Source: Trachythela sp. YZ-2020
Taxonomy: Eukaryota > Cnidaria > Anthozoa > Malacalcyonacea > Clavulariidae
NCBI GenBank assembly: GCA_016169945.1
Contig: JADLSH010000279.1
Span: 2,604,001 to 2,668,000, forward strand
Direction: 5' to 3'
Length of the DNA: 64,000 nt
This document shows, piece after piece, positions 11,812-38,772 of the stretch (the first letter of the stretch is position 1; each line of letters starts with the position of its first letter). The position numbers and the translations under genes are program-made. The notes below the pieces were generated by a model. The model was given only the letters and a program-made list of their open reading frames with translations, did not search any database and was not told where the DNA came from.

Positions 11812-13419
11812 ATGGCGAGGAGAAACTCATATGGCGGGTACAAAGAGGAGAGATTTGAAAACAAAGTAGATATTAGACTACTGTGTCCTATTTGCTTGAA
11901 GGTAATAAAAGATCCAGTACAATGCCCGAATGAACATCACTTCTGTGGCTCGTGTGTTCGAAAGCACTTGCACGAAAACTCCAAAACCTGTCCAACGTGC
12001 AAACACCATCTGACGGAAAAAACTTTGACGAAACCACCGAGATTTTTAACGGAAACGTTGGAGCGTCTCAAGATTCGGTGTGATAACGCAAGCCGTGGTT
12101 GTCGAGAGTTGATCGAGCTTGAATTTCTCGATCGGCATGTCAAGAAATGTGGCTATTCACCAACACGTTGTACAAACACGGGCTGCTCTCAAGTCATCAA
12201 CCGACACGAGCAAGAACGACACGAGAATGAACTTTGTCGTTTTCGTATGATTGTTTGTGACGAATGTAAGCAACAAGTGTTACGCAAGTCCAGTCGTTCC
12301 CATCCCTGTTTCATGAGGAAGGAAATGGACGATTTCGCGAGAAAGACGGAGAAAGACGTGAAGGAACTCAAGGATAAAGAGCTGACTCAAGAAGAGTTTA
12401 TTCGGAACCTGATGGCCGAAGTTGCCTGTCAAAATGATGTTATTGATGATCTACGCCGCAAAATGAATAACATGGAATCAGAAATGGAATGCCTTACCAA
12501 CGAAGCGAGCGAGAGAAGTGAATGGTTCACAGGTAGACAGAAAATTGTTGTTTGCGGAGGGCGGGATGATAAATCTGCTCTTAATTCCGTAGAGTCGTAC
12601 AGCTGGCCCGAGAATTCCTGGACACTAGAACCAGCAATGAAAGAGAAACGACAAGGTCTTTCGGCATTTGTATACGAGCGGCAAATATATGTCAGTGGCG
12701 GATGGATGGGGACCGAGAGAACTGACAGTATTGAAAGCTTGAATGTTGACAACGAACGCATAGAATGGATCGAGTCTCCTGTCAAGATGCCAATCAAGTG
12801 TCGTAGCCACGGAATGGTTTGTAATGAAGATAGAGCAATTTTGACTGGCGGACTTACTGACGGTGACAATGTTTTAGACGCGATTTACGAAATTACACTA
12901 ACTCCCCCATACACGACGGAGTTATTGACCCAGATGCCAGAGCCACGATGTTACCATGGTTGTCAGATTATTGACAACCAGGTTGTGGTTGCTGGCGGAC
13001 GGCCATCAAAATACGCCAACAACGCTAAAAACAGTGTCTATGCATACGACATTAACAATAATGAATGTAACACCTTACCGCCATTGCCTTTTCCTATCGC
13101 TGATATGGCTACTGTTAGTTATAAAGGTAATGTAATTTTGATCGGAGGCTCTAATGAGAAATCTCAAACATTAAACACAGTATTCATGTACGAGGTAAAA
13201 ACAGGAAAAATTAAGGTGCTACCTTGCCTTAATCATAAAAGATCAGAAAGTGCAGCAGTTATCACTGGCAATGTTATCATTGTGATGGGCGGCTATGTTC
13301 ATGAAACTAAAACATTTCTCGATTCAGTAGAGTGCTTAGACTTAAGTACCAATGTATGGAGAGAACTGTCACCAATGACAACTAAACGATATGCAGCTGC
13401 AGTTCTTAAACCAATTTAG
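11812..13419 (+). CDS. RING / zinc-finger / Kelch protein, paralogue 1 (putative E3 ubiquitin ligase)
   Basis: Intact 535-residue single-exon frame. A C3HC4 RING lies at residues 25-63 (Cys25, Cys28, Cys38, His42, Cys45, Cys48, Cys60, Cys63). Cys/His-rich zinc fingers follow (about 90-166), including CDNASRGC and CTNTGC, resembling NRDP1/RNF41 and TRAF-type fingers. A charged coiled coil spans about 170-235. From about 245 to the end there are roughly six Kelch blades marked by Gly-Gly doublets (VCGG, VSGG, LTGG, VAGG, LIGG, VMGG). The expected role is a one-chain ubiquitin ligase: the RING recruits E2, the propeller binds substrate. The start ATGGCGAGG is conserved in all five copies. It differs from the others in the Kelch loops (for example GGRDDK, KRQGLSAF, PRCYHG) and has Met in GGWMGTER. 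Substrate unknown. Confidence 0.9.
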   Translation: MARRNSYGGYKEERFENKVDIRLLCPICLKVIKDPVQCPNEHHFCGSCVRKHLHENSKTCPTCKHHLTEKTLTKPPRFLTETLERLKIRCDNASRGCRELIELEFLDRHVKKCGYSPTRCTNTGCSQVINRHEQERHENELCRFRMIVCDECKQQVLRKSSRSHPCFMRKEMDDFARKTEKDVKELKDKELTQEEFIRNLMAEVACQNDVIDDLRRKMNNMESEMECLTNEASERSEWFTGRQKIVVCGGRDDKSALNSVESYSWPENSWTLEPAMKEKRQGLSAFVYERQIYVSGGWMGTERTDSIESLNVDNERIEWIESPVKMPIKCRSHGMVCNEDRAILTGGLTDGDNVLDAIYEITLTPPYTTELLTQMPEPRCYHGCQIIDNQVVVAGGRPSKYANNAKNSVYAYDINNNECNTLPPLPFPIADMATVSYKGNVILIGGSNEKSQTLNTVFMYEVKTGKIKVLPCLNHKRSESAAVITGNVIIVMGGYVHETKTFLDSVECLDLSTNVWRELSPMTTKRYAAAVLKPI

Positions 13420-13649
13420 AATGTATTCAATTGAACTGTTGGGACAAAACTGTTTAAGTACACTAGCGTATATAATCCTATATGTAAGAATATCATATCA
13501 TTTTAAACAGTTTATTATATACTATATCCGTAATTAAGATAATTATTCAATGTAGCATAAGATATATTAGTACTGTATATAACATGATAGTTTTATCACT
13601 ATTTAATACACAATATTATATCGTATAGAAGTATTTCATTAGTCCACCA

Positions 13650-14005
13650 CACTAAACTAACTTTATTTATACTGGATAGCTCTATCAGCTCTAAACTGTT
13701 CTCCCTAGAAGTTCAGTAAGAGTCATCTCTTATTGATCCAGTGTTACTACAGGAGGAAACCTAAACTAAACTAACTTTATTTATACTGGATAGCTCTATC
13801 AGTTCTAAACTGTTCTCCCTAGAGGTCCAGTAAGGATCATCCCTTATTGATCCAGTGTTACTACAGGAGGAAACCTAAACTAAACTAACTTTATTTATAC
13901 TGGATAGCTCTATCAGTTCTAAACTGTTCTCCCTAGAGGTTCAGTAAGAGTCATCTCTTATTGATCCAGTGTTACTACAGGAGGAAAGTTGAACTAAACT
14001 AACTT
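13650..14005. repeat. 114-bp satellite, three units, downstream of Kelch gene 1
   Basis: CTAACTTTA recurs at 13657, 13771, 13885 and 13999, exactly 114 bp apart. Units contain TACTGGATAGCTCTATCAG and TGTTACTACAGGAGGAAA. The family recurs after each Kelch gene and, in either orientation, in UBE2O introns. Confidence 0.9.
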
Positions 14006-14409
14006 TAGTGATTTCAATCAAACTGTGACAGTTTAATCAAGTTTACCAATCTGACGGGGAGTTTTGAACAAAAGCAAATTGATTTCATTAATAATTAGTT
14101 TTCAAAACACAGTTTTTGACATCGTCGTTTGACACTTTTGACTATAACACTTTTGTTGCATTTCACGGCGACAACCAGTCCATCTAAAGCGAGAAAAACT
14201 GATATACGTCGAGAAAAGTCTGTTGACGAAGAGCTTTTGCTTGAAACTTCCAGAAGTATATTGATTCTGTTTAGATTGAGCGGCTATTGTGAAATCCAAC
14301 AAAAATATTTGCGGCCAACGCTGGACTCGCCATTGTCTTGGAGTTTCCCAGTTCATAATGAAAGAAAATAACTTATATCATAAAAAATCACTATATCATA
14401 AGACCACCT

Positions 14410-14800
14410 CATCCGAGAACAGAAATTTCCAAGTAATATTTACACACATTTTATGCATTCTTTTCTTCAATTCACTTTGGTTGCGCTAAAATGATCTGTT
14501 ATGACTTACAAAAGAACACAGTTTGATATCGATAAGCTTGTTATATTAATACAATTTCATCCCTCTTAAACTATGTTCCTAGCTTTTAAACAAGTATAGT
14601 GTTGAAGTAATACAACTTTTCCACCAAATGTTGGTATTTTTGACAGGGCAGACACTAAATCATTCGCAGTTTCACTTCTGATAATAAACATTGATATTTT
14701 GTTATATAGATAATTAAACCACGCAACGAAATATAGATATCAAACTGTGTTCCTTTGTAAGTCATAATGCATCATTTTAACAGTTGAGTATCAATTGGAA
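14410..14800 (-). repeat. Rearranged and inverted promoter unit after Kelch gene 1
   Basis: From about 14410 to 14530 the sequence runs in the same direction as the gene promoter. At about 14531 (GATATCGATAAGCTTG) it switches to the reverse complement of the upstream part of a promoter unit, up to about 14795. The segment therefore looks like an internal inversion. The short minus-strand frame at 14102-14356 next to it is a diverged form of one found after genes 2 and 4. Confidence 0.65.
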
Positions 14801-15183
14801 GACAGTTATGTCTAAAATGTTTTTCAAGTGCACTTGACAGTTCACAAGAAACTGTTTGTTATATACACGAAAGAACCCTAAAACTGTTCAGTAACTTCTT
14901 TTATAGATTTCTATTTTCAAGTTCGTTTTTGAGATATTCCGTTTTCTTTAATAAAGCAATACAATCAACATGACGTCATCATAAATAACGAGGCATCAGT
15001 GAATGTTATATTTCTTTGCTTGTATTTAACGAAATCATTTGGAACAGACAATGTGCTTTTATTTCTCCTACAGCATTAATCCTGCTGATCCTTAAATAAT
15101 TTCGTCAGAAGATAACAAAGATATAAAGACTTCACTAATATCTCATTATATGTGATATAGAGCGGGCCCGACTTATCATAGTG
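14800..15183. repeat. Inter-gene tail block (copy 1 of 4)
   Basis: Contains AAGTGCACTTGACAGTTCAC and, further on, GATATAGAGCGGGCCCGA. Homologous blocks lie at about 20980-21375, 28620-29000 and 34635-35015. No supported coding region. Confidence 0.65.
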
Positions 15184-15655
15184 TTTCATTGTTTCCTGAG
15201 CACTCGATATGACGTTACGATACGTTTGAAGTGGAAAACGGCCTATGCCAATTAATTACATGTTTGGAGTAGAGCTCTGTTTAAACTAGCTTGCGTAGCT
15301 AAATCAGTAGCCTGCATGTGCACAGATCTACTTATTTAGCAGCCTCATTTATAGGGCAAAACCAGACCACCCGAATATTTTAAGGCGGCAAATAAGTAGG
15401 TCTGTGCTCAGGCTATTAAATCGGATATCGCTGTATAAATGTTGATTAAACAAACAAAAAAAAGTAGTCGGGGAAAAATCTGGGATAATTTGTTCTCAGA
15501 ACCATTGCCAGTATAGATCACGCTATTCTAGCTTGTCCATGTAGATTGTTTGTCTTATATTTACAATAAGATGGATGTTCCGTAAGATAGCGCCCCTATC
15601 ATAATTCAAGCCAAAGAAAAAGTCCGAAAGTGAAACTCTATTAGAGAGACCTTAT
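15184..15655. repeat. Unit-boundary block with internal hairpin (copy 2)
   Basis: Homologous to 10345-10930 but shorter: it lacks a small internal segment near 15330 and has one copy of the CATTGCCAGTATAG motif instead of two. It leads straight into the promoter-like repeats of gene 2. Confidence 0.65.
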
Positions 15656-16293
15656 TGTTCTAATATAACAAGCTTCCCAGAACAGAATTTCCAAGTAATA
15701 TTTAAACACATTTTATGCATACTTTTCTATAATTAAACCTCGGTGGCAGCGCTAAAATGATGCATCATGACTTACAAAAGAACACAGTTTGATATCCATG
15801 CTTCGTCATCAAAATATCAATGTTTATTACCAGAAGTGAAACTATGAATGATTTATGGTTGTCTCTGTCAAAAACACCAACATTTGGTGGAAAAATTGTA
15901 TTACTTAACACTATACTTGTTTGAAAGCTAGGAACATAGTTTTAGAGGAATTAAATTGTGTGAATACAACAAGCTTCCCAGAACAAAATTTCCAAGTAAT
16001 ATTTAAAGACAATTTTATGCCTACTTTTCTTTAATTAAACCTTTGTGGCAGCGCTAAAATGATGTATTATGACTTACACAAAAGAACACAGTTTGATATC
16101 TATGCTTCGTTGCGCGATTTAATCATCTTGCTAACAAAATATCAATGTTTATTATCAGAAATGAAACTGTGAATGATTTAGTGCCTGCTCTGTCAAAAAC
16201 ACCAGCATTTGGTGGAAAAGTTGTATTACTTCAACACTATACTTGTTTAAAAGTTAGAAACATAGTTTAAGAGGGATGAAATTGTATTAATAT

Positions 16294-16556
16294 AACAAGC
16301 TTCCAGGAACAGCAATTTCCAAGTAATATTTAAACACAATTTATGCATACTTTCTTTAATTCACTTTGGTCGCGCTAAAATGATCTGTTATGACTTACAA
16401 AAGAACACAGTTTGATATCGATACTATCTGAGGTGGTCTTATGATATAACGACCCACCATCAGATCCATATTTCATTACGAACAAGGAGTACTGAGGAAT
16501 CTCTCTAAGACAAGGTCTTTATAATGACTACAATCTATCTTTCAAACAACCCTTAC
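16294..16556 (+). pseudogene. Orphan Kelch-gene promoter and 5' leader with deleted coding region
   Basis: The sequence follows the proximal promoter and 5' leader of the Kelch genes, including GAGGTGGTCTTATGATATAA and the CTTTCAAACAAC that normally lies about 20 bp before the ATG. It then jumps directly into the satellite (CTTACTGATCCAGTGTTACT) that normally lies after the stop. The simplest reading is a deleted gene copy: promoter and 3' satellite kept, coding region lost. Confidence 0.7.
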
Positions 16557-16910
16557 TGATCCAGTGTTACTACAGGAGGAAACCTACACTAAACTAACTT
16601 TATTTATACTGGATAGCTCTATCAGTTCTAAACTGGTCTCCCTAGAGGTCCAGTAAGAGCCATTCAGTGTTACCCATATGTATATGTTGATCCAGTGTTC
16701 CTACAGGAGGAAATCTAAACTAAACTAACTTTATTTATACTGAATAGCTCTATCAGTTCTAAACTGGTCACCCTAGAGGTCCAGTAAGAGCCATTCAGTG
16801 TTACCCATATGTATATGTTGATCCAGTGTTCCTACAGGAGGAAATCTAAACTAAACTAACTTTATTGATACTGAATAGCTCTATCAGTTTTAAACTGTTC
16901 TCCCTATGGG
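16556..16910. repeat. 114-bp satellite inside the gene 2 promoter array
   Basis: About three diverged units, starting with TCCAGTGTTACTACAGGAGG and containing variants with CCCATATGTATATG. They stand where the 3' end of a deleted Kelch gene would be. Confidence 0.8.
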
Positions 16911-18131
16911 TGTTCCGTAAAATAGCGCCCCTATCATAATTCCAGCCAAAGAAAGTGAAACTCTATTAGAGAGACCTTATTGTTCTAATATAACAAGCTT
17001 CCCAGAACAGATTTTCCAAGTAATGTTTACACAGATTTTATGCATACTTTTCTATAATTAAACCTCGGTGGCAGCGCTAAAATTATGCATCATCATGATT
17101 ACAAAAGAACACAGTTTGATATCCATGCTTCGTCATCAAAATATCAATGTTTATTATCAGAAGTGAAACTATGAATGATATTCTCTGTCAAAAACACCAA
17201 CATTTGGTGGAAAAATTGTACTACTTCTACACTATACTTGTTTAAAAGCTAGGAACATAGTTTTAGAGGAATTAAATTGTATGAATATAACAAGCTTCCC
17301 AGAACAAAATTTCCAAGTAATATTTAAAGACAATTTTATGCCTACTTTTCTTTAATTAAACCTTTGTGGCAGCGCTAAAATGAGGTATTATGACTTACAC
17401 AAAAGAACACAGTTTGATATCTATGCTTCGTTGGGTGATCTAATCATCTGTCAAAAACACCAGCATTTGGTGGAAAAGATGTATTACTTAACACTATACT
17501 TGTTTAAAAGCTAGAAACATAGTTTAAGATAGATGAAAGTGCATTAATATAACAAGCTTCCAAGAACATAATTTCCAAAGTAATATAAATAAAGACAATT
17601 TTATGCCTACTTTTCTTTAATTAAACCTTTGTGAAAGCGCTAAAATGATGTATTATGACTTACACAAAAGAACACCGTTTGATATCTATGCTTCGTTGGG
17701 TGATCTAATCATCTTGCTAACAAAATATCAATGCTTGTTATCAGAAGTGAAACTGTGAATGATTTAGTGTCTGCTCTGTCAAAAACACCAACATTTGGTG
17801 GAAAAGTTGTATTACTTCAACACTATACTTGCTTAAAAGTTAGAAACATAGTTTTAGAGGAATTAAATTGTATCAATATAACAAGCTTCCCAGAACAGAA
17901 TTTCCAAGTAATATTTAAACACATTTTATGCATACTTTTCTTTAATTCACTTTGGTCGCGCTAAAATGATCTGTTATGACTTACAAAAGAACACAGTTTG
18001 ATATCGATACTATCTGAGGTGGTCTTATGATATAACGACCCACCATCAGATCCATATTTCATTACGAACAAGGAATCTCTCTAAGACAAGGTCTTTACAA
18101 TCTGTCTTTCAAACAACGATATCGAAGAGAA

Positions 18132-19710
18132 ATGGCGAGGAGAAACTCATTTGGCGGGTACAAAGAGGAGAGATTTGAAAACAAAGTAGATGTGAGACTA
18201 CTGTGTCCTATTTGCTTGAAGGTAATAAAAGATCCAGTACAATGCCCGAATGAACATCACTTCTGTGGCTCGTGTGTTCGAAAGCACTTGCACGAAAACT
18301 CCAAAACCTGTCCAACGTGCAAACACCATCTGACGGAAAAAACTTTGACGAAACCACCGAGATTTTTGACGCAAACGTTGGAGCGTCTCAAGATTCGGTG
18401 TGATAACGCAAGCCGTGGTTGTCAAGAGTTGATCGAGCTTGAATTTCTCGATCAGCATGTCAAGAGATGTGGCTATTCACCAACACGTTGTACAAACACG
18501 GGCTGTTCTGAAGTCATCAACCGACACGAGCAAGAACGACATGAGAATGAACTTTGTCGTTTTCGTATGATTGTTTGTGACGAATGTAAGCAACAAGTGT
18601 TACGCAAGTCCAGTCGTGCCCATCCCTGTTTCATCAGGAAAGAAACGGACAATTTAGTCAAAGACGTGAAGGAACTCAAGGATAAAGAGCTGACTCAAGA
18701 CGAGTTTATTCGGAACCTGAAGACCGAAGTTGCCTGTCAAAATGATGTTATTGATGATCTACGCCACAAAATGGAATGCCTTACCAACGATGCGACCGAG
18801 AGATGTGATCTATTCACCGGGAGACGAAAGATATTTGTTTGCGGAGGGACAGATGGTAAGACTGTTCTTAATTCCGTAGAGTCGTACAGCTGGCCTGAGA
18901 ATTCCTGGACACTAGAACCAACAATGAAAGAGGCACGATCAGTCCCTTCTGCATTTGTATACGAGCGGGAAATATATGTCAGTGGCGGATGGATTGGCAC
19001 CGGGCCCACTGACAGTATTGAAAGCTTGAATGTTGACAACGAACGCATAGAATGGATCGAGTCTCCTGTCAAGATGCCAATCAAGTGTCGTGGCCACAGA
19101 ATGGTTTGTAATGAAGATAGAGCAATTTTGACTGGTGGACGTACTGACGGTGACAATGTTTCAGACGGGATTTACGAAATTAAACTAACTCCCTCCATAC
19201 ACGACGAAGTTATTGACCCAGATGCCAGAGCCCCGATATAACCATGGTTGTCAGATTATTGACAACCAGGTTGTGGTTGCTGGCGGACAGACATCAAAAT
19301 ACGCCAAGGACGCTAAAAACACCGTATATGTATACGACATTAACAATAAAGAATGTAAAACCTTACCGCCACTGCCATTTCCTATCTCTGAGATGGCTAC
19401 TGTCAGTTATAAAGGTAATGTAATTTTGATCGGAGGCGTTAATGAGAAAGTTCAAACATTAAACACAGTACTCATGTACGAAGTGAAAACAGGAAAAATT
19501 AAGATGTTACCTTGCCTTAATCATAAAAGAGCAGCAAGTGCAGCAGTTATCACTGGCAATGTTATCATTGTCATGGGTGGCTATGTTTATGAAACTAAAA
19601 CATTTCTCAATTCAGTCGAGTGCTTAGACTTAAGTACCAATGTATGGAGAGAACTGTCACCAATGACAACTAAACGAGGTGGCGCAGCTGCAGTTCTCAA
19701 ACCAACTTAG
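18132..19710 (+). pseudogene. RING / zinc-finger / Kelch paralogue 2, frameshifted
   Basis: The first frame (18132-19241) has the RING, zinc fingers, a coiled coil about ten residues shorter than in gene 1, and the first Kelch blades. The remaining blades continue in another frame (19213-19710). Paralogue 4 reads AACTCCTCCATAC where this copy reads AACTCCCTCCATAC at 19188-19200, so one extra C in a C-run causes the break. Everything else is intact, including the conserved C-terminal pattern. It could be a recent pseudogene, an allele with a truncated 369-residue RING protein, or an assembly indel. Kelch loops differ from gene 1 (GGTDGK, ARSVPSAF, PRYNHG, GGVNEK). Confidence 0.85.
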
Positions 19711-19939
19711 AATGTATTCAATTGAACTGTTGGGACAAAACTGTTTAAGTATACTAGCGTATATAATCCTATATATAAGAATATCATATCATTTTGAACA
19801 GTTTATTGTATACTATATCCCTAAGTAAGATAATTATTCAATGTAGCATAAGATATATTAGTACTGTATATAACTTGTTATTTTTATCACTATTTAATAC
19901 ACAATATTAATAATTGCATCGTATATAAGAAGTATTTCA

Positions 19940-23789: not shown

Positions 23790-24856
23790 GGCATGGTGGA
23801 AAAAGACGGACTACGGAGTGCGGAGTCTATCAAAAAGCCCTTTTACGCTAGAGCCTATATAGGCAATCCATAATTAATTAAGGTCGTCTGCGAAGTAGGC
23901 TAAAGGCTCTTTTCCACTCGTCGCAAAACCAACTCGCAAGCTCGCTGCGAGTACTTTCATCCAATCACAATGCTCGACAGTTTATTTTAATTACATGCAA
24001 GAACTCGCAGCGAGTTGGTTTTGCGATGAGTGGAAAAGAGCCTTGTAAGGCAATCGATTCTTGTCATACTCTGTCTTTTCCACCACACTGGGAAGGGGTG
24101 GGGGGGGGAAGGGAGGGGAATGGGAGGAGGCGAAGGAGGGGGAAGGGAGAGGGAGCATGCCAGAGGAAGTGTTAAGCTTATTAACATTCAATTTTAACTA
24201 TTTAATAGAAACTCTATTTAATAGAGACTAAGCTACCGTCATATAGTCGTTTTGACGTCACATAATCTAAACAACAGCAGCAGACGAATATTAAGACAAA
24301 ACAATTAACCTACAAACAATTTTTTCTTTTTTGTTTAAGCTAAACTACGGACAATAGTCCTATAAAAATTCAAGATCATTTCAAGATATCTATTAAAACA
24401 AGTCTATGCACAATAGTTTGTCGAAAATACATTGCTTTTAGCCGTCCTTTGGATTTCTCAAGATGTCTATTTTGTTTTCTAAAGTCTAAATAATAGTCAG
24501 TGAATAGAAATGCTTAAATCGCTTCGCGCCTCGCAACACTACACTAAACTTAATTTGAATATTTCAAAGATCTGTTACACAAAAATCATTATACGTGTCA
24601 AACAATACTTTGTTGTGCATGTTATCGAACCGGTAATTCGAAGCAAGATCTATGATATGATGTTCTAACCCGTTTCTCTCGCAATTATGTAAGTTAAAAA
24701 CGAATGTTAAGCTTAAAGAAACACTTTTTTGACAGACTCCTTCACTTCGCGTTTTTCACTCCGCGCCCCGTCTTGGCATGGTGGACAGAATCTAATGAAT
24801 CTCCGTACTCGGTACTGCGCACTCCGTACTCTGCACTCCGTCTTTTCCACCATGCC
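23790..24856. mobile_element. Terminal-inverted-repeat element inserted in the Kelch gene 3 promoter
   Basis: The left end GGCATGGTGGAAAA and the following GACGGA are mirrored by the right end at 24841-24856 (TCTTTTCCACCATGCC). The promoter sequence broken at GATCTGTTATGACT on the left resumes right of the element at CTCTGAAGTGGTCTTATGAT. About 30-40 bp of the usual proximal promoter are missing. A tandem of short CGTACTC/GCACTCC motifs sits near the right end. No transposase seen. Confidence 0.72.
23905..24042. mobile_element. Nested foldback element, 138 bp
   Basis: Left arm GGCTCTTTTCCACTCGTCGC and right arm ending GCGATGAGTGGAAAAGAGCC are inverted repeats over about 35 bp, continuing into ACTCGCAGCGAG. 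It lies inside the larger element at 23790-24856. Confidence 0.8.
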
Positions 24857-25026
24857 AAACACTCTCTGAAGTGGTCTTATGATATAACGCCACGTCACCA
24901 GAGTATTTTCTTTCATTATGAGCAAGGAAACTCTAAGACACGGTCTGTCAAATCTGTCTTTCAAACAACGATATCAAAAGTATACTTAAATAGAAAAGCG
25001 AACGATTTCTCCCGTTTCGAAGAGAA

Positions 25027-26625
25027 ATGGCGAGGAGAAATTCCTTTGGCGGGTACGAAGAAGAAAGGTTTCAAAACAAAGTAGATATTAGACTACTGTG
25101 CCCTATTTGCTTCAGGGTAATAAAAGATCCGGTACAATGCCCGAATGAACATCACTTCTGTGGCTCGTGTATTCGAAAGCACTTGCACGAAAACTCCAAA
25201 ACCTGTCCAACGTGCAAACACCATCTGACGGAGGAAACTTTGACGAGACCACCGAGATTTTTGACCGAAACGTTGGAGCGTCTCAAGATTCGGTGTGATA
25301 ACGCAAGCCATGGTTGTCAAGAGTTGATCGAGCTTGAATTTCTCGATCGGCATGTCAAGGAATGTGGCTATTCACCAACACGTTGTACAAACACGGGCTG
25401 TTCTGAAGTCATCAACCGACACGAGCAAGAACGACATGAGAATGAACTTTGTCGTTTTCGTATGATTGTTTGTGACGAATGTAAGCAACAAGTGTTACGC
25501 AAGTCGAGTCGTGTCCATCCCTGTTTCATCAGGAAAGAAATGGACGATTTAATAAGAAATATGAAGGAACTCAAGGATAAAGAGTTGACTCAAGAAGAGT
25601 TTATTCGGAACCTGAAGACAGAAGTTGCCTGTCAAAATGATGTTATTGATGATCTACGCCGCAAAATGAATAACATGAAATCAGAAATGGAATGCCTTAC
25701 CAACGACGCGACCGAGAGATGTGATCTATTCACCGGGAGACGAAAGATATTTATTTGTGGGGGGACAGATGCTAAGACTGCCCTTAATTCCGTAGAGTCG
25801 TACAGCTGGCCGGAGAATTCCTGGACACTAGAACCAGCAATGAAAGAGAAACGATCAGGTCCTTCAGCATTTGTATACGAGCGGCAAATATATGTCAGTG
25901 GCGGATGGATTGGGACCGGGCCCACTGACAGTATTGAAAGCTTGAATGTGGACAACGAACGCATAGAATGGATCGAGTCTCCTGTCAAGATGCCAATCAA
26001 GTGTCGTGGCCACGGAATGGTTTGTAATGAAGATAGAGCAATTTTGACTGGTGGACGTACTGACGGTGACAATGTTTCAGACGGGATTTACGAAATTAAG
26101 CTAACTCCCCCATACACGACGAAGTTATTGACCCAGATGCCAGAGCCACGATGTTACCATGGTTGTCAGATTATTGACAACCAGGTTGTGGTTGCTGGCG
26201 GACAAACATCAATATACATCAAGGACACTAAAAACACCGTATATGTATACGACATTAACAATAAAGAATGTCAAGCCTTACCTCCACTGCCTTCTCCTAT
26301 GTCTGGGATGGCTACTGTTAGTTATAAAGGTAATGTACTTTTGATCGGAGGCGTTAATGAGAAAGATCAAACATTGAACACAGTACTCATGTACGAAGTG
26401 AAAACAGGAAAAATTAAGATGTTACCTTGCCTTAATCATAAAAGATCAGCAAGTGCAGCAGTTATCACTGGCAATGTTATCATTGTCATGGGTGGTTATA
26501 ATTATGAAACTAAAACATGGCTCAATTCAGTCGAGTGCTTAGACTTAAGTACCAATGTATGGAGAGAACTGTCACCAATGACAACTAAACGAGCTTATGC
26601 ATCTGCAGTTCTTAAACCAATTTAG
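25027..26625 (+). CDS. RING / zinc-finger / Kelch protein, paralogue 3
   Basis: Intact 532-residue frame with the same order of RING, NRDP1/TRAF-like zinc fingers, coiled coil and about six Kelch blades as paralogue 1. All RING Cys/His ligands are kept. The coiled coil is slightly shorter than in paralogue 1. Kelch-loop variants include GGTDAK, KRSGPSAF, GGQTSIYIK, GGVNEKDQ and GGYNYETKTWLN. Unlike the other copies its leader (TTTCATTATGAGCAAGGAAA) resembles the inverted promoter copies, and the direct repeat array has been disrupted by the element at 23790-24856. Its expression may therefore differ. The leader also holds an extra stretch (about 24985-25020) not seen in the others. Confidence 0.9.
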   Translation: MARRNSFGGYEEERFQNKVDIRLLCPICFRVIKDPVQCPNEHHFCGSCIRKHLHENSKTCPTCKHHLTEETLTRPPRFLTETLERLKIRCDNASHGCQELIELEFLDRHVKECGYSPTRCTNTGCSEVINRHEQERHENELCRFRMIVCDECKQQVLRKSSRVHPCFIRKEMDDLIRNMKELKDKELTQEEFIRNLKTEVACQNDVIDDLRRKMNNMKSEMECLTNDATERCDLFTGRRKIFICGGTDAKTALNSVESYSWPENSWTLEPAMKEKRSGPSAFVYERQIYVSGGWIGTGPTDSIESLNVDNERIEWIESPVKMPIKCRGHGMVCNEDRAILTGGRTDGDNVSDGIYEIKLTPPYTTKLLTQMPEPRCYHGCQIIDNQVVVAGGQTSIYIKDTKNTVYVYDINNKECQALPPLPSPMSGMATVSYKGNVLLIGGVNEKDQTLNTVLMYEVKTGKIKMLPCLNHKRSASAAVITGNVIIVMGGYNYETKTWLNSVECLDLSTNVWRELSPMTTKRAYASAVLKPI

Positions 26626-29915: not shown

Positions 29916-29939
29916 TTTTTAAATATTTTTTCTTTGCTG

Positions 29940-30534: not shown

Positions 30535-31771
30535 TCTAATATAACAAGCTTCCCAGAACAGATTTTCCAAGTAATATTTACACAGATTTTATGCATACTT
30601 TTCTATAATTAAACCTTGGTGGCAGCGCTAAAATGATGCATCACAAGTTACAAAAGAACGCAGTTTGATATCCATGCTTCGTCATCAAAATATCAATGTT
30701 TATTACCAGAAGTGAAACTATGAATGATTTATGGTTTTCTCTGTCAAAAACACCAACATTTGGTGGAAAAATTGTATTACTTAACACTATACTTGTTTGA
30801 AAGCTAGGAACATAGTTTTAGAGGAATTAAATTGTGTGAATACAACAAGCTTCCCAGAACAAAATTTCCAAGTAATATTTAAAGACAATTTTATGCCTAC
30901 TTTTCTTTAATTAAACCTTGGTGGCAGCGCTAAAATGAGGTATTATGACTTACACAAAAGAACACAGTTGATATCTATGCTTCGTTGGGTGATCTAATCA
31001 TCTTGCTAACAAAATATCAATGTTTGTTATCAGAAGTGAAACTGTGAATGATTTAGTGTCTGCTCTGTCAAAAACACCAGCATTAGGTGGAAAAGATGTA
31101 TTACTTAACACTATACCCCATGTCTATTCTGTGACTATACTTGTTTAAAAGCTAGGAACAGAGTTTTAGAGGAATTAAATTGTATGAATATATAACAAGC
31201 TTCCCAGAACAAAATTTCCAAGTAATATTTAAACACATTTTATGCATACTTTTCTTTAATTAAACCTTGGTGGCAGCGCTAAAATGATGTATTATGACTT
31301 ATAACACAGTTTGATATCTATGCTTCGTTGGGTGATTTAATCATCTTGCTAACAAAATATCAATATGTTTATTATCAGAAGTGAAACTGTGAATGATTTA
31401 GATTTTATTGTCTGCCCTGTCAAACACACCAACATTTGGTGGAAAAGTTGTATTACTTCAACACAATACTTGCTAAAAGCTGGAAACATAGTTTAAGAGG
31501 AATGAAATTGTATTAATATAACAAGCTTCCCAGAACAGAATTTCCAAGTAATATTTAAACACATTTTATGCATACTTTTCTTTAATTAACTTTGGTCGCA
31601 CTAAAATGATCTGTTATGACTTACAAAAGAACACAGTTTGACATCGATACTATCTGAGGTGGTCTTATGATATAACGACCCACCATCAGATCCATATTTC
31701 ATTACGAACAAGGAATCTATCTAAGACAAGGTCTTTACAATCTGTCTTTCAAACAACGATATCGAAGAGAA
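30535..31771 (+). promoter_or_regulatory. Promoter-like repeat array upstream of Kelch gene 4 (4 units)
   Basis: Unit starts near 30542, 30844, 31194 and 31520, all with TTCCCAGAA. AGAAGTGAAAC occurs in each of the three full units (near 30708, 31032 and 31378). The last unit leads into the conserved leader and the ATG at 31772. Confidence 0.6.
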
Positions 31772-33382
31772 ATGGCGAGGAGAAATTCCTTTGGCGGGTA
31801 CGAAGAAGAAAGGTTTGAAAACAAAGTCGATATTAGACTACTGTGTCCTATTTGCTTGAAAGTAATAAAAGATCCAGTGCAATGCCCGAATGAACATCAC
31901 TTCTGTGGCTCGTGTGTTCGAAAGCACTTGCACGAAAACTCCAAAACCTGTCCAACGTGCAAACACTATCTGACGGAAAAAACTTTGACGAAACCACCGA
32001 GATTTTTGACGCAAACGTTGGAGCGTCTCAAGATTCGGTGTGATAACGCAAGCCGTGGTTGTCGAGAGTTGATCAAGCTTGAGTTTCTCGATCGGCATGT
32101 CAAGGAATGTGGCTATTCACGAACACGTTGTACAAACACGGGCTGTTCTGAAGTCATCAACCGACACGAGCAAGAACGACATGAGAATGAACTTTGTCGT
32201 TTTCGTATGATTGTTTGTGACGAATGTAAGCAACAAGTGTTACGCAAGTCCAGTCGTGCCCATCCCTGTTTCATGAGGAAGGAAATGGACGATTTCGCGA
32301 AAAAGACGGAGAAAGATATGAAGGAACTCAAAGATAAAGAGCTGACTCAAGAGGAGTTTATTCGGAACCTGAAGACAGAAGTTGCCTGTCAAAATGATGT
32401 TATTGATGATCTACGCCACAAAATGAATAACATGAAATCAGAAATGGAATGCCTTACCAACGATGCGATCGAGAGATGTGATCTATTCACCGGGAGACGA
32501 AAGATATTTGTTTGCGGAGGGAGTGATGATAAGACTACCCAAAATTCCGTAGAGTCGTACAGCTGGCCCGAAAATTCCTGGACACTAGAACCAGCAATGA
32601 AAAAGGGACGATTAGGTCCTTCGGCATTTGTATACGAGCGCCAAATATATGTCAGTGGCGGATGGATTGGGACCGAGAACACTGACAGTATTGAAAGCTT
32701 GAATGTTGACAGCGAACGCATAGAATGGATCGAGTCTCCTGTCAAGATGCCAATCAAGTGTCGTGGCCACGGAATGGTTTGTAATGAAGATAGAGCAATT
32801 TTGACTGGTGGACTTACTGACGGTGACAATGTTTCAGACGGGATTTACGAAATTAAACTAACTCCTCCATACACGACGAAGTTATTGACCCAGATGCCAG
32901 AGCCACGGTGTCACCATGGTTGTCAGATTATTGACAACCAGGTTGTGGTTGCTGGCGGACAGACATCAGAGTACGCCAAGGACATTAAAAACACCGTATA
33001 CGTATACGACATTAACAATAACGAATGTCAAGCCTTACCGCCACTGCAATTTCCTATCGCTAGCATGGCTACTGTTAGATATAAAGGTAATGTAATTTTG
33101 ATCGGGGGCTTTAATGAGAAAGCTCAAACATTAAACACAGTACTCATGTACGAAGTGAAAACAGGAAAAATTAAGATGCTACCTTGCCTTAATCATAAAA
33201 GAGCAGCAAGTGCAGCAGTTATCACTGGCAATGTTATCATTGTCATGGGTGGCTATGTTAATGAAACTAAAACATATCTCAATTCAGTCGAGTTCTTAGA
33301 CTTAAGTACCAATGTATGGAGAGAACTGTCGCCGATGACAACTAAACGAGGTTATGCATCTGCAGTTCTCAAACCAACTTAG
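31772..33382 (+). CDS. RING / zinc-finger / Kelch protein, paralogue 4
   Basis: Intact 536-residue frame. RING ligands, zinc fingers, coiled coil (FAKKTEKDMKELKDKELTQE) and about six Kelch blades are all present. Variants in the Kelch loops include GGSDDKTTQN, KGRLGPSAF, GGWIGTENTD, PRCHHG, GGQTSEYAK, PPLQFPIASM, GGFNEK and GGYVNETKTYLN. The RING half differs from paralogue 1 at only a few positions (for example HYLTEK and LIKLEF). It is expected to act like the others as a RING ubiquitin ligase with a Kelch recognition domain; no substrate can be deduced. Confidence 0.9.
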   Translation: MARRNSFGGYEEERFENKVDIRLLCPICLKVIKDPVQCPNEHHFCGSCVRKHLHENSKTCPTCKHYLTEKTLTKPPRFLTQTLERLKIRCDNASRGCRELIKLEFLDRHVKECGYSRTRCTNTGCSEVINRHEQERHENELCRFRMIVCDECKQQVLRKSSRAHPCFMRKEMDDFAKKTEKDMKELKDKELTQEEFIRNLKTEVACQNDVIDDLRHKMNNMKSEMECLTNDAIERCDLFTGRRKIFVCGGSDDKTTQNSVESYSWPENSWTLEPAMKKGRLGPSAFVYERQIYVSGGWIGTENTDSIESLNVDSERIEWIESPVKMPIKCRGHGMVCNEDRAILTGGLTDGDNVSDGIYEIKLTPPYTTKLLTQMPEPRCHHGCQIIDNQVVVAGGQTSEYAKDIKNTVYVYDINNNECQALPPLQFPIASMATVRYKGNVILIGGFNEKAQTLNTVLMYEVKTGKIKMLPCLNHKRAASAAVITGNVIIVMGGYVNETKTYLNSVEFLDLSTNVWRELSPMTTKRGYASAVLKPT

Positions 33383-33619
33383 AATGTATTTAATTGAACT
33401 GTTGGGTCAAAACTGTTTAAGTACATTAGCGTATATAATCCTATATATAAGGATATCATCTCATTTTGAACAGTTTATTGTATATTATATCCGTATAATT
33501 AAGATAATTATTCAATGTAGCATAAGATATATTAGTACTGTATATAACTTGTTATTTTTATCATTATGTAATACACAGTATTAATAATTGCATCGTATAT
33601 AAGAAGTATTTCATTTGTC

Positions 33620-33905
33620 CAGTGTTACTACACGAGGAATCTGAAGTAAAAAGACTTTAACAATTGACTCTATTTATACTGGATAACCTTATCAGATCTA
33701 AACTGTTCTCTCTAGAGATCAAGTAAGAGCCATTCCTTATTGATCCAGTGTTACTACAGGAGGAAACCTAAACTAAACTAACTTTATTTATACTGAATAG
33801 CTCTATCAGATCTAATTAAACTGTTCTCCCTAGAGGTCCAGTAAGAGCCATTCCTTATTGATCCAGTGTTACTACAGGAGGAAACCCGAACTAAACTAAC
33901 TTTAT
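33620..33905. repeat. 114-bp satellite downstream of Kelch gene 4
   Basis: About two and a half units of the same family, beginning with the shortened TATACTGGATAACCTTATCAG form as after gene 2. Confidence 0.85.
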
Positions 33906-34004
33906 AATTGGTTTTCAAAACTCAATTTTTGACATCGTTGTTTGAAAGACAAATTGTTCAGACTATAACACTTTTGTTGGATTTCACGGCGACAACCAGC
34001 CAAT

Positions 34005-34635
34005 CTAAACCGAGAATATATACTTCGAGCAAAGTCTCCTGACGAAGAGCTTTTGCTTGAAACGTCTAGAAGTATATTGATTCTGTTTAGATTGAGTGGC
34101 TATAAGTGAAATGTAACAAAAGCCTTTTGCGGCGAATGCTGGACCCCCCAGTTTTAGATTGTAAAGACATTGTCTTGGAGTTTCCCTGCTCATAATGAAA
34201 GAAAATAACTTTTTGATGTGTCGTTATATCATAAGACCACCTCAGATAGTATCGATATCAAACTGTGTTCTTTTGTAAGTCATAACAGATCATTTTAGCG
34301 CGACTAAAGTGAATTATAGAAAATTATGCATAAAATGTGTTTAAATATTACTTGGAAATTCTGTTCCTGGAAGCTTGTTATATTAATACAATTTCATCCC
34401 TCTTAAACTATGTTTCTAACTTTTAAACAAGTATAGTGTTGAAGTAATACAACTTTTCCACCAAATGCTGGTGTTTTTGACAGGGCAGACACTAAATCAT
34501 TCGCAGTTTCACTTCTGATAATAAACATTGATATTTTGTTATATTTAGATAATTAAACCACGCAACGAAGCATAGATATCAAACTGTGTTCCTTTGTAAG
34601 TCATAATGCATCATTTTAACAGTCGAGTATATCAG
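34005..34635 (-). promoter_or_regulatory. Inverted promoter copy after Kelch gene 4, with short minus-strand frame
   Basis: About 34190-34600 is the reverse complement of the Kelch promoter, with TTCCTGGAA near 34366. The minus-strand 62-codon frame at 34005-34193 is almost identical to that at 20350-20538. The plus strand here (about 34040-34070) carries CTGACGAAGAGC, a T-loop, then GCTTGAAACGTC. Confidence 0.5.
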
Positions 34636-35047
34636 AAGACAGTTATGTCTAAAATGTTTTTCAAGTGCACTTGACAGTTCACACGAAACTCTTTCTTACA
34701 TTAAACGAAAGAACCTCTAAAACTGTTCAGTAACTTCTTTTATAGATTTCTAATTTCATGTTTCGTTTTTGAGATACTCCGTCTTCTTTAATAAAGCAAT
34801 ACAACCAACATGACGTCACCATAAATAACGAGGCATCAGTGAATGTTATATTTCTTTGCTTGTATTTAATGAAATCATTTGGAACAGACGATGTGTGTTT
34901 ATTTCTCCTACAGCATTAATCCTGCTGATCCTGAAATAATTTCGTTAGAAGATAACAAAGATATAGAGCCTTCACTAAAATCTCATTATATGTGATATAG
35001 AGCGGCCCCGAATTATCATAGTGTTTCTTTGTGTGTTTGCGTGTTTC

Positions 35048-35640
35048 TTTGTTTCCTGAGCACTGGATATGACGTTACGATACGTTTGAAGTGGAAAACG
35101 ACCTGCATGCGCCAATTAATTACATGTTTGGAGTAGGGCTCTGTTTAAACTAGCTTGCGTACCTAAATCAGTAGCCTGTATGTGCACAGATCTACTTATT
35201 TGGCTCCTTATTTAGCAGCCTCGTTTATAGGGCAAAACCAGACCACCCGAAAATTTTAAGGCGGCAAATAAGTAGGTCTGTGCTCAGGCTATTAAATCGG
35301 ATATCGCTGTATAAATGTTGATTAAACAAACAAAAAATATATAATCGGGGGAAAATCTGGGCTAATTTGTTCCCAGAATCATTGCCAGTATAGATCACGC
35401 TATTCTAGCTGGTTCGTCTGGATAGCTCGTCTTGTGTTTAAACTAAGACAGATGATATGTCTATAAATATGGTGTTAGGCGAACTAGGACCATTGCCAGT
35501 ATAGATCACGCTATTCTGGCTTGTCCATGTAGATTGTTTGTCTTATATTTACAATAAGATGGATGTTCCGTAAGATAGCGCCCCTATCATAATTCAAGCC
35601 AAAGAAAAAGTCCGAAAGTGAAACTCTATTAGAGAGACGA
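35048..35640. repeat. Unit-boundary block with internal hairpin (copy 4)
   Basis: Close copy of 10345-10930, with the foldback and two CATTGCCAGTATAG motifs. It leads into the promoter array of gene 5. Confidence 0.7.
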
Positions 35641-35644
35641 AATT

Positions 35645-37178
35645 GTTCTAATATAACAAGCTTCCCAGAACAGATTTTCCAAGTAATATTTACACAGATT
35701 TTATGCATACTTTTCTATAATTAAACCTCGGTGGCAGCGCTAAAATGATGCATCATCATGATTACAAAAGAACGCAGTTTGATATCCATGCTTCGTCATC
35801 AAAATATCAATGTTTATTATCAGAAGTGAAACTATGAATGATTTTCTCTGTCAAAAACACCAACATTTGGTGGAAAAATTGTATTACTTAACACTATACT
35901 TGTTTAAAAGCTAGGAACATAGTTTTAGAGGAATTAAATTGTATGAATATAACAAGCTTCCCAGAACAAAATTTCCAAGTAATATTTAAACACATTTTAT
36001 GCATACTTTTCTTTAATTAAACCTTGGTGGCAGCGCTAAAATGATGTATTATGACTTACACAAAAGAACACAGTTTGATATCTATGCTTCGTTGCGTGAT
36101 TTAATCATCTTGCTAACAAAATATCAATGTTTGTTATCAGAAGTGAAACTGTGAATGATTTAGTGTCTGCTCTGTCAAAAACACCAGCATTTGGTGGAAA
36201 AGATGTATTACTTCAACACTATACTTGTTTAAAAGCTAGGAACATAGTTTTAGAGGAATTAAATTGTTTGAAAATAACAAGCTTCCCAGAATAGAATTTC
36301 CAAGTAATATTTAAACACATTTTATGCATACTTTTCTTTAATTAAACCTTGGTGGCAGCGCTAAAATGATGTATTATGACTTACACAAAAGAACACAGTT
36401 TGATATCTATGCTTCGTTGCGCGATTTAATCATCTTGCTAGCAAAATATCAATGTTTATTATCAGAAGTGAAACTGTGAATGATTTAGTGTCAGCTCTGT
36501 AAAAAACACCAACATTTGGTGGAAAAATTGTATTACTTAACACTATATACTTGTTTAAAAGCTAGGAACATAGTTTTAGAGGAATTAAATTGTGTGAATA
36601 CAACAAGCTTCCCAGAACAAAATTTCCAAGTAATATTTAAAGACAATTTTATGCCTACTTTTCTTTAATTAAACCTTTGTGGCAGCGCTAAAATGATGTA
36701 TTATGACTTACACAAAAGAACACAGTTTGATATCTATGCTTCGTTGGGTGATCTAATCATCTTGCTAACAAAATATCAATGTTTGTTATCAGAAGTGAAA
36801 CTGTGAATGATTTCGTGTTTGCTCTGTCAAAACACCAACACTTGGTGGAAAAGTTGCATTACTTCAACACTATACTTGTTTAAAAGTTAGAAACATAGTT
36901 TAAGAGGGATGAAATTGTATTAATATAACAAGCTTCCCAGAACAGAATTTTCAAGTAATATTTAAACACATTCTATGCATACTTTTCTTTAATTCACTTT
37001 GGTCGCGCTAAAATGATCTGTTATGACTTACAAAAGAACACAGTTTGATATCGATACTATCTGAGGTGGTCTTATGATATAACGACACACCATCAGATCC
37101 ATATTTCATTACGAACAAGGAATCTCTCCAAGACAAGGTATTTACAATCTGTCTTTCAAACAACGATATCGAAGAGAA
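35645..37178 (+). promoter_or_regulatory. Promoter-like repeat array upstream of Kelch gene 5 (5 units)
   Basis: Unit starts near 35655, 35951, 36276, 36602 and 36927, spaced 296, 325, 326 and 325 bp. TTCCCAGAA is present in all five. AGAAGTGAAAC is present in all four full units (near 35822, 36138, 36466 and 36790). The proximal unit leads into the conserved leader and ATG. Confidence 0.6.
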
Positions 37179-38772
37179 ATGGCGAGGAGAAACTCATATG
37201 GCGGGTACAAAGAGGAGAGATTTGAAAACAAAGTAGATATTAGACTACTGTGTCCTATTTGCTTGAAGGTAATAAAAGACCCGGTACAATGCCCGAATGA
37301 ACATCACTTCTGTGGCTCGTGTGTTCGAAAGCACTTGCACGAAAACTCCAAAACCTGTCCAACCTGCAAACACCATCTGACGGAAAAAACATTGACGAAA
37401 CCGAGGATTTTTTACGGAAACGTTGGAGCGTCTCAAGATTCGGTGTGATAACGCAAGCCGTGGTTGTCGAGAGTTGATCGAGCTTGAATTTCTCGATCGC
37501 CATGTCAAGAGATGTGGCTATTCACCAACACGTTGTACAAACACGGGCTGTTCTGAAGTCATCAACCGACACGACCAAGAACGACACGAGAATGAACTTT
37601 GTCGTTTTCGTATGATTGTTTGTGACGAATGTAAGCAACAAGTGTTACGCAAGTCAAGTCGTGCCCATCCCTGTTTCATGAGGAAGGAAATGGACGATTT
37701 CGCGAGAAAGACGGAGAAAGATATGAAGGAACTCAAGAATAAAGAGCTGACTCAAGAAGAGTTTATTCGAAACCTAAAGGCCGAAGTTGCCTGTCAAAAT
37801 GATGTTATTGATGATCTACGCCTCAAAATGGAATACCTTACCAACGATGCGACCGAGAGATGTGATCTATTCACAGGCAGACGAAAGTTATTTGTTTGTG
37901 GAGGGACAGATGGTAAGACTAACTTTAATTCCGTAGAGTCGTACAGCTGGCCCGAGAATTCTTGGACACTAGAACCGCCAGCAATGAAAGAGAAACGATC
38001 AGTTCCTTCCGCATTTGTATACTTGCGGCAAATATATGTCAGTGGCGGATGGATTGGGACCGAGCACACGGACAGTATTGAAAGCTTAAATGTTGACAGC
38101 GAACGCATAGAATGGATCGAGTCTCCTGTCAAGATGCCAATCAAGTGTCGTGGACACGGAATGGTTTGTAATGAAGATAGAGCAATTTTGACTGGTGGAC
38201 GTACTGACGGTGACAATGTTTCAGACGGGATTTACGAAATTAAACTAACTCCTCCATACACGACGAAGTTATTGACCCAGATGCCAGAGCCACGATGTGA
38301 CCATGGTTGTCAGATTATTGACAACGAGGTTGTGGTTGCTGGCGGAAGGACATCAAAATGCGCCAAGGACATTAAAAACACCATATACGTATACGACATT
38401 AACAATAACGAATGTAAAACCTTACCCCCACTGCCATTTCATATCTCTAGTATGGCTACTGTTAGTTATAAAGGTAATGTAATTTTGATCGGAGGCATTA
38501 ATGAGAAAGCTCAAACATTAAACACAGTACTCATGTACGAAGTGAAAACAGGAAAAATTAAAATGCTACCTTGCCTTAATCATAAAAGAGCAGCAAGTGC
38601 AGCAGTTATCACTGGCAATGTTATCATTGTCATGGGTGGTTATGATTATGAAACTAAAACATTTCTCAATTCAGTCGAGTGCTTAGACTTAAGTACCAAT
38701 GTATGGAGAGAACTGTCACCAATGACAACTAAACGAGGTTTTGCATCTGCAGTCCTCAAACCAATTTGCTAG
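37179..38772 (+). pseudogene. RING / zinc-finger / Kelch paralogue 5, frameshifted
   Basis: The RING is encoded in one frame (37179-37448); the zinc fingers, coiled coil and Kelch domain continue in another (to 38772). Relative to paralogue 1, the stretch CCACCGAGATTTTTA has become CCGAGGATTTTTT at about 37401-37413, a net loss of two bases. It also has one extra codon near 37976 and a stop two codons later than the others. All other motifs are intact, so the break is recent or artefactual. If real, translation would give a RING-only peptide of about 89 residues. Loop variants: GGTDGKTNFN, KRSVPSAFVYLRQ, PRCDHG, GGRTSKCAK, GGINEK, GGYDYETKTF. Confidence 0.85.

What the first reader, a model, noticed from the sequence alone, without database searches (positions are those of the whole stretch)
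11812..38772. Kelch recognition face diversified among five tandem RING-Kelch paralogues
The RING and zinc-finger halves are nearly identical, while differences concentrate at matching positions of successive Kelch blades. After Gly-Gly: RDDK / TDGK / TDAK / SDDK / TDGK; later R, Q, Q, Q, R; later SN, VN, VN, FN, IN; later GYVHETKTF, GYVYETKTF, GYNYETKTW, GYVNETKTY, GYDYETKTF. After the blade-starting Arg: QG, SV, SG, LG, SV; later CYH, YNH, CYH, CHH, CDH; later SE, AA, SA, AA, AA; finally YA, GG, AY, GY, GF. In KEAP1 these two loop classes line the ligand pocket. This pattern suggests diversifying selection on substrate binding with a constant ubiquitin-transfer module, as expected of a recognition or defence family.
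Basis: partly seen in the sequence, partly recalled or inferred. Interest (0 to 1): 0.87.

Follow-up and report, generated by a model that had tools for sequence, protein, structure and literature searches.

The report
Coral ubiquitin ligases with fast-changing pockets
A genome that looks like a soft coral's carries a row of five near-copies of a predicted protein-tagging enzyme (a ubiquitin ligase) whose amino-acid differences pile up at the likely target-binding pocket while the rest stays similar, as would be expected of a family selected to recognise many or changing targets, possibly microbes.

Summary
Five tandem single-exon genes encode RING, TRAF6/SIAH-like zinc fingers, a coiled coil and a six-bladed Kelch propeller; named relatives are octocoral proteins. 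In KEAP1 register, non-synonymous divergence peaks at the pocket positions (Arg+1, Arg+2, GlyGly+1, GlyGly+6): pN 0.25-0.32 against 0.044 for the rest of Kelch. On the predicted propeller the DA/BC-loop face has pN 0.108, the opposite face 0.022, with similar synonymous divergence (0.132, 0.124). Site models favour positive selection (M1a/M2a p 1.7e-7; 0 of 107 null simulations as large). In relatives, pocket positions differ more than the rest of the propeller in 127 of 127 same-contig pairs. Likely mechanism: a TRAF/TRIM-like direct E3 family with a diversifying Kelch recognition face. Defence is plausible but untested. My searches found no published description.

The parts
11812..13419 (+). 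Copy 1: intact RING-ZnF-coiled coil-Kelch ORF, 535 aa, no intron
18132..19710 (+). Copy 2: same gene, frameshifted by one extra base in blade 3 (about 19190); open in two overlapping frames
25042..26625 (+). Copy 3: intact, 527 aa from the shared ATG (an in-frame ATG lies at 25027); upstream region differs from the other four copies
31772..33382 (+). Copy 4: intact, 536 aa; reference for numbering and for the structure model
37179..38772 (+). Copy 5: frameshifted by two missing bases between RING and zinc fingers (about 37412); Kelch half open
31844..31960 (+). RING finger (C3HC4) of copy 4, residues 25-63
   Evidence: PF00097, 26.9 bits, cut-off 21; metal ligands invariant or at least 90% conserved among 73 sequences
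32024..32272 (+). TRAF6/SIAH-like zinc fingers of copy 4, residues 85-167
   Evidence: zf-TRAF in copy 4, Sina_ZnF in copy 1, both below cut-off; TRAF6 chain 5vo0_A, E 1.8e-18, query 9-167
32348..32488 (+). Coiled coil (inferred) of copy 4, residues 193-239
   Evidence: one long predicted helix, ten-residue pLDDT means about 53-69
32492..33379 (+). Six-bladed Kelch propeller of copy 4, residues 241-536; DA loops (274-283, 326-333, 375-382, 423-432, 471-480, 520-529) and BC loops (249-259, 296-305, 346-356, 395-408, 445-456, 494-505) carry most of the diversified positions
12532..13416 (+). Kelch domain of copy 1
2029..4152 (-). UBA2 (SUMO-activating enzyme subunit 2), neighbour of the array

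Best explanation
The five genes are tandem copies of an octocoral-type RING, zinc-finger, coiled-coil and Kelch protein, predicted to be single-chain ubiquitin ligases, in which amino-acid change is concentrated at the predicted pocket face of the Kelch propeller, likely because selection keeps changing what each copy would bind. Mechanism: the coiled coil likely joins chains (predicted helix, not tested), the propeller face made of DA and BC loops would hold a peptide or surface of the target as KEAP1 holds NRF2, and the conserved RING with the TRAF6-like zinc fingers would pass ubiquitin from an E2 to that target. Duplication makes new copies, gene conversion likely keeps parts of the body alike, and diversifying selection changes the pocket. 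Shown: the architecture, the one-sided concentration, similar synonymous change on the two faces, its recurrence in relatives. Inferred: ligase activity, target binding, the identity of the targets (pathogen proteins or endogenous ones).
For: Register control: pN at R+1 0.275, R+2 0.318, GG+1 0.248, GG+6 0.251; the other registers scanned 0.00-0.13, except GG+5 0.18. These lie in the loops that line the KEAP1 pocket: PMC4668279 (passages read) places the substrate surface on DA and BC loops and names Arg380, Asn382, Arg415, Arg483, Ser363, Ser508 as NRF2 contacts; PMC6891428 (passages read) adds Tyr334, Tyr525, Ser555, Ala556, Tyr572, Phe577, Ser602 for inhibitors. Broad loop set dN/dS 1.36 against 0.24 outside it. 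Splitting pocket from the rest of Kelch improves lnL by 45-50 (2 df, p < 1e-19). M1a/M2a 2dlnL 31.1, M7/M8 31.8; Kelch alone 26.7 and 27.7. 0 of 107 null data sets reach 26.7, maximum 18.0. Signal in three intact copies alone p 1.9e-4 and without copy 1 p 8e-5, and in each Kelch half under its own topology p 0.005 and 2e-4, but not in the N-half p 0.53. Synonymous-only codons: 0 of 24 in the pocket, 36 of 272 elsewhere in Kelch. Propeller model with ten-residue pLDDT means of 83-98; Foldseek to KEAP1, KLHL12, KLHL20 at rmsd 1.6-2.0 A. In 125 family proteins mean entropy is 2.03 at pocket sites, 0.76 at other Kelch sites. 127 of 127 same-contig pairs in 24 groups have pocket difference above the rest of Kelch (means 0.55 and 0.16; N-half 0.115).
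Against: With a free rate for the pocket, omega is 1.5-1.7 and not distinguishable from 1 (p 0.30-0.32 for the 24-codon set, 0.08 for the 63-codon set); by pairwise counting the 24-codon set has dN/dS 1.10, because path averaging also assigns it a high pS of 0.25. Dropping 35 codons with more than one variable position removes the site-model signal (p 0.74), so multi-nucleotide events could inflate it. Dropping the 24 pocket codons leaves some signal elsewhere (p 0.004). Topologies conflict between N-half and Kelch, so gene conversion is likely, and site models are known to be inflated by it (recalled). One of the 107 null fits reached 18.0, so the null tail is not negligible. Two of five copies are broken as assembled. 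In the family the coiled coil is more variable than Kelch as a whole (entropy 1.04 against 0.86). AF2 gave low confidence for the RING region (pLDDT below 50 at residues 1-114). No expression, binding or ligase data exist here, and no control Kelch family was run.
Confidence: 0.72

Rival explanations
1. Relaxed constraint: the copies are redundant, the pocket has lost its target and drifts neutrally while the fold is kept.
For: Pocket omega with a free rate is compatible with 1, the counted pocket dN/dS is 1.10 and the whole DA/BC face has omega about 1.0; two copies carry frameshifts.
Against: Pocket pN (0.25-0.32) exceeds synonymous divergence of the gene (Kelch pS 0.122, RING 0.159) and divergence of the flanks (2.5-5.8% over 600 bp upstream in four of five copies, 5-14% downstream); 0 of 24 pocket codons are synonymous-only; the same pattern is seen in 24 groups of relatives.
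Confidence: 0.13
2. A mutational or conversion process: ectopic gene conversion from divergent paralogues, or multi-nucleotide mutation, imports pocket differences without selection.
For: Conflicting topologies between N-half and Kelch; zinc-finger pS only 0.045 against 0.12-0.16 elsewhere, as if homogenised; 11 of 24 pocket codons vary at 2 or 3 positions, and the site-model signal is lost without such codons; the pocket's path-averaged synonymous count ranks 4th of 296 positions of the set.
Against: Synonymous divergence is similar on the two faces; in the pocket first and second positions vary about 5.7 times more often than in the rest of Kelch (27 of 48 against 54 of 544), third positions only 1.9 times (8 of 24 against 49 of 272); no clear base bias at pocket sites. 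A process blind to protein function should not pick R+1, R+2, GG+1 and GG+6 in several blades.
Confidence: 0.1
3. Adaptive diversification of endogenous substrate specificity or self-recognition, not of defence: each copy degrades a different host protein.
For: Kelch E3 adaptors of animals act on host proteins (DVL for KLHL12, DAPK1 for KLHL20: abstracts in the search listing); nothing in the window points to immunity; the same selection data fit.
Against: Same-contig copies in relatives differ at about half of the pocket sites although the rest of Kelch is on average 84% and the N-half 88% identical; the window's and Dendronephthya's arrays are each monophyletic, which hints at turnover rather than stable one-to-one duties, although only 4 of the 19 contig groups tested there are monophyletic. 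Known precedents of this pattern include defence families such as finTRIM.
Confidence: 0.32
4. A decaying pseudogene array with no function.
For: Frameshifts in 2 of 5 copies.
Against: Three copies are fully open, RING metal ligands are conserved, omega outside the loops is 0.24-0.43, and the neighbouring inversin-like gene is also split by an apparent frameshift near 8240, so assembly error is a fair explanation.
Confidence: 0.04

Closest known systems
finTRIM genes of teleost fish (PMC2657112, abstract and section list seen) and TRIM5alpha
   Same: Clustered RING E3 families; RING region nearly constant; C-terminal recognition domain under positive selection at matching positions; lineage-specific expansion.
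   Different: finTRIMs have a B-box and, in the long variants, a B30.2 domain; here TRAF6-like zinc fingers and a Kelch propeller. finTRIMs were found as virus-induced transcripts; nothing is known of induction here.
TRAF family (TRAF6)
   Same: RING, zinc fingers, coiled coil, C-terminal binding domain (family layout recalled); the N-half matches the TRAF6 chain 5vo0_A at E 1.8e-18.
   Different: The MATH (TRAF-C) domain is replaced by a Kelch propeller.
BTB-Kelch (KLHL) proteins: KEAP1, KLHL12, KLHL20
   Same: Six-bladed Kelch propeller with DA and BC loops on one face.
   Different: No BTB or BACK domain; own RING, so it would not need CUL3; pocket diversified between tandem copies.
Nematode and plant F-box and MATH-BTB families under adaptive evolution (recalled; not read here)
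   Same: Expanded ubiquitin-ligase receptors with selection on the substrate-binding domain.
   Different: Those are cullin adaptors; here receptor and RING are on one chain, in a cnidarian.

Membership tests
RING-type E3 ligases | C3HC4 metal ligands | tested here: met
   PF00097 above cut-off; C25-x2-C28-x9-C38-x3-H42-x2-C45-x2-C48-x11-C60-x2-C63, each invariant or at least 90% conserved in 73 sequences
RING-type E3 ligases | E2-dependent ubiquitin transfer | not testable with these tools
   needs biochemistry
Kelch propellers | six Kelch repeats closing a six-bladed propeller with BC and DA loops on one face | tested here: met
   (predicted structure)
BTB-Kelch (KLHL) | BTB and BACK domains | tested here: not met
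   no BTB or BACK match at E 0.01 in the three intact copies
TRIM | B-box between RING and coiled coil | tested here: not met
   no B-box match at E 0.01 in the three intact copies
TRAF | RING plus TRAF-type zinc fingers | tested here: inconclusive
   TRAF6 chain 5vo0_A matched over query 9-167 at E 1.8e-18, but PF02176 zf-TRAF at 18 bits is below its cut-off of 27 and was listed for copy 4 only
TRAF | C-terminal MATH domain | tested here: not met
   no MATH match at E 0.01; Kelch instead
Diversifying recognition family (finTRIM-like mode) | positive selection concentrated on the ligand face, constant effector half | tested here: met
   with the free-rate caveat and the multi-position caveat
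Diversifying recognition family (finTRIM-like mode) | induction by infection or binding of a pathogen molecule | not testable with these tools
   no expression or binding data

The most novel reading that the evidence does not exclude
Octocorals carry a germline arsenal of single-chain ubiquitin ligases whose Kelch pocket works as a variable binding site: an intracellular immune-recognition family, independent of TRIMs and NLRs, generated by repeated tandem expansion at a locus beside UBA2 and elsewhere and driven by an arms race.
Probability: 0.37. Interest if true: 0.86.

Novelty: new variant of a known kind. Interest (0 to 1): 0.68.

Why it matters
It puts a TRIM/finTRIM-like evolutionary pattern on a different scaffold (RING, TRAF-like zinc fingers and Kelch) in a non-bilaterian animal group whose antiviral recognition is little known (recalled). 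It suggests that the propeller pocket known from KEAP1 can act as the fast-evolving surface of a multigene family. The variable positions are named residue by residue, so ligand-binding and immune-challenge tests can be designed directly. If the defence reading is right, it is a new class of candidate restriction factors in corals.

Tried and rejected
The window's own genome could not be searched: the same genome search was made four times and each time the machine did not answer; the genome-wide copy number is therefore unknown. Considered and rejected: BTB-Kelch adaptor, TRIM, true TRAF (missing domains); pure pseudogene array (three open copies, low omega outside the loops); hypermutation with base bias (pocket transitions/transversions 14/13 and near-even base use). 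The first register used for the blade-3 DA loop (Arg331 as anchor) was replaced by the GG-minus-17 register (Cys330); searches use the old register, and the five-copy counts do not change because neither exchanged site varies among the copies. The M2a fit reached a slightly worse optimum than (-3606.24 against -3604.69); the null simulations used the fitting routine (observed 28.0 there). An M2a variant without multi-position codons and a free-rate pocket test went against the reading and are reported. No control Kelch family (for example single-copy KLHL genes across corals) was run.
Full report
What is there. The window comes from an octocoral or close kin: the nearest named relatives of the array are Paramuricea clavata and Dendronephthya gigantea proteins, and its UBA2 is 86% identical to that of D. 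gigantea. Five genes on the + strand, starting 5.4-6.9 kb apart, share one single-exon design: RING (C3HC4), TRAF6/SIAH-like zinc fingers, a predicted long helix read as coiled coil, six Kelch repeats. A tblastn of copy 4 against the window found the five copies and one weak antisense match inside copy 3 (23% identity, E 0.003), no sixth copy. The copies sit in repeat-rich duplicated DNA: the 600 bp upstream are 94-98% identical in four copies, while copy 3 has another upstream region; the 500 bp downstream are 86-95% identical. Copies 1, 3 and 4 are open. The inversin-like gene next door is also split by an apparent frameshift near 8240, so assembly errors are a fair explanation.

The observation. 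The quoted residues are there, with one register slip in copy 1. Counting over all codons, RING pN is 0.025, zinc fingers 0.030, coiled coil 0.058, Kelch 0.063; within Kelch the broad loops have pN 0.181 and dN/dS 1.36, the rest pN 0.030 and dN/dS 0.24. So it is not the Kelch domain as a whole that is variable but two loop classes in it. Sliding the register residue by residue gives peaks at Arg+1, Arg+2, GlyGly+1 and GlyGly+6. These lie in the DA and BC loops that form the KEAP1 pocket; PMC4668279 (passages read) states that the substrate surface is made by DA and BC loops and lists Arg380, Asn382, Arg415, Arg483, Ser363 and Ser508 as NRF2 contacts. Their placement in the motif register (for example Ser363 and Ser508 at Arg+1, Arg483 at GlyGly+6) is recalled; it agrees with the alignment to the designed SAKe propellers.

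Is it more than chance? The 24 codons chosen from KEAP1, not from the data, hold 18 amino-acid-variable sites of 24 against 50 of 272 in the rest; no random 24-codon set of 100,000 and none of 295 circular shifts reaches their non-synonymous count. Their path-averaged synonymous count is also high (rank 4 of 296), but none of the 24 codons is synonymous-only, against 36 of 272. On the predicted propeller (ten-residue pLDDT means 83-98 in the Kelch part; Foldseek to KEAP1, KLHL12 and KLHL20 at 1.6-2.0 A) the DA/BC face has pN 0.108, pS 0.132; the AB/CD face pN 0.022, pS 0.124; strands pN 0.030, pS 0.105 (loop limits taken by hand from the DSSP line). Face omegas are about 1.0 and 0.16, different at p 1.4e-7 and 3.5e-7 under two topologies.

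Selection. No PAML or HyPhy was at hand, so GY94-type codon models were written and fitted in Python. M0 omega is 0.47 and the tree is nearly a star. A fixed-sites split of pocket from the rest of Kelch is strongly supported (2dlnL 90-99). Pocket omega is 3.7-3.8 (24 codons) or 1.8-1.9 (63 codons) if all parts share one synonymous rate (against omega 1: p below 1e-8, and 1.1e-4 to 2.5e-4), but 1.5-1.7 and not significantly above 1 if the pocket gets its own rate (p 0.30-0.32 and 0.08). Pairwise counting gives 1.10 for the 24 codons. M1a/M2a gives 2dlnL 31.1 (p 1.7e-7; 10% of sites, omega 4.3), M7/M8 31.8; Kelch alone 26.7 and 27.7. Of the 27 Kelch sites with posterior above 0.7 in the Kelch-only fit, 21 lie in the DA/BC registers labelled there. 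Of 107 data sets simulated without positive selection none reaches 26.7; one reaches 18.0. The result survives four topologies, removal of the two broken copies (p 1.9e-4), removal of copy 1 (p 8e-5) and separate fits of the two Kelch parts under their own topologies (p 0.005, 1.7e-4), and is absent from the N-half (p 0.23; 0.53). It does not survive removal of the 35 codons with more than one variable position (p 0.74); that removal discards the most diversified pocket codons, but it means that multi-nucleotide change cannot be excluded as an inflating factor. Removing the 24 pocket codons leaves a weaker signal (p 0.004).

Gene conversion. The N-half favours (c1,c5),(c3,c4) by 8.4 lnL units over the next tree; Kelch blades 1-3 favour (c1,c4),(c2,c3) by 3.2; blades 4-6 do not decide (three trees within 0.4). 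Zinc-finger pS is 0.045, about a third of that elsewhere.

The family. In 125 sequences (the 120 listed of 429 database relatives plus the five copies) mean entropy is 2.03 bits at the 24 pocket sites and 0.76 at the other Kelch sites (p 1e-9); by part it is RING 0.60, zinc fingers 0.72, coiled coil 1.04, Kelch 0.86. Pairs are not independent, and most sources are unnamed, so some groups may stem from the same or sister species. In a midpoint-rooted tree the window's five copies form one clade (support 0.995), sister to a clade of the four listed D. gigantea genes (1.0), which share the 1,504,247-bp contig; of 19 groups tested, four are monophyletic (these two and two pairs) and the other 15 interleave with other contigs. 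That contig length is also the one given for D. gigantea UBA2; of the eight UBA2 relatives at 78% identity or more on contigs above 25 kb, five share a contig length with a listed RING-Kelch protein. So an array beside UBA2 seems to be an old locus, and at least in the window's species and D. gigantea it has expanded, or been homogenised, separately.

What it works like. By parts, it is a TRAF6-like RING-zinc-finger-coiled-coil body with a Kelch propeller where TRAFs have MATH and many TRIMs have B30.2 (layouts recalled). [quoted passage not shown] It is not a TRIM (no B-box), not a TRAF (no MATH) and not a BTB-Kelch protein (no BTB) by Pfam at E 0.01. The mechanism put forward, an E3 whose pocket chooses the target, is an inference from domain knowledge; neither activity nor ligand has been shown.

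Novelty. Searches of the held paper library for octocoral, coral or Cnidaria with kelch and related terms, for octocoral with genome assembly, gene family and ubiquitin ligase and for RING-kelch positive selection gave 0, 4, 0, 0, 1 and 0 papers; the five listed were judged unrelated from title and abstract start and not opened. This covers open-licence papers only. I rate it a new variant of a known kind.

Noticed in passing
window 2029-4152 (-) and the array: UBA2 ends about 7.7 kb before the array, with the inversin-like gene between; contig lengths suggest that UBA2 and RING-Kelch genes share a contig in Dendronephthya and on four further contigs.
   Followed up: partly
window 5142-10134 (+): Inversin-like ankyrin-IQ gene, in two long ORFs joined by an apparent frameshift near 8240, which hints at residual assembly errors in the window. 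The name is by recall from ankyrin plus weak IQ matches.
   Followed up: partly
window 2029-4152, 5142-10134, 40845-41519: UBA2, the inversin-like gene and an ARF-family GTPase all read as long uninterrupted ORFs, which is unusual for animal genes; retrocopies or intron loss were not tested.
   Followed up: no
window 45571-58391 (-): Pieces that look like a UBE2O-type E2/E3 gene with introns (by eye from ORF translations, not searched), so several ubiquitin/SUMO pathway genes may lie in one window.
   Followed up: no
window 54107-55548: Long low-complexity tract with extreme GC skew (-0.60 in 54001-56000).
   Followed up: no
window 24442-25041: Copy 3 has an unrelated upstream region (about 52% identity) while the other four share 94-98% over 600 bp, so its regulation may differ.
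   Followed up: no
window 12052-12315 and matching zinc-finger parts of the other copies: Synonymous divergence in the zinc-finger part is about a third of that elsewhere (0.045 against 0.12-0.16), a sign of recent gene conversion.
   Followed up: partly
family alignment, copy-4 residues 316-324: A second variable stretch (end of the CD loop and start of the D strand of blade 2) differs between relatives but not among the five copies.
   Followed up: no
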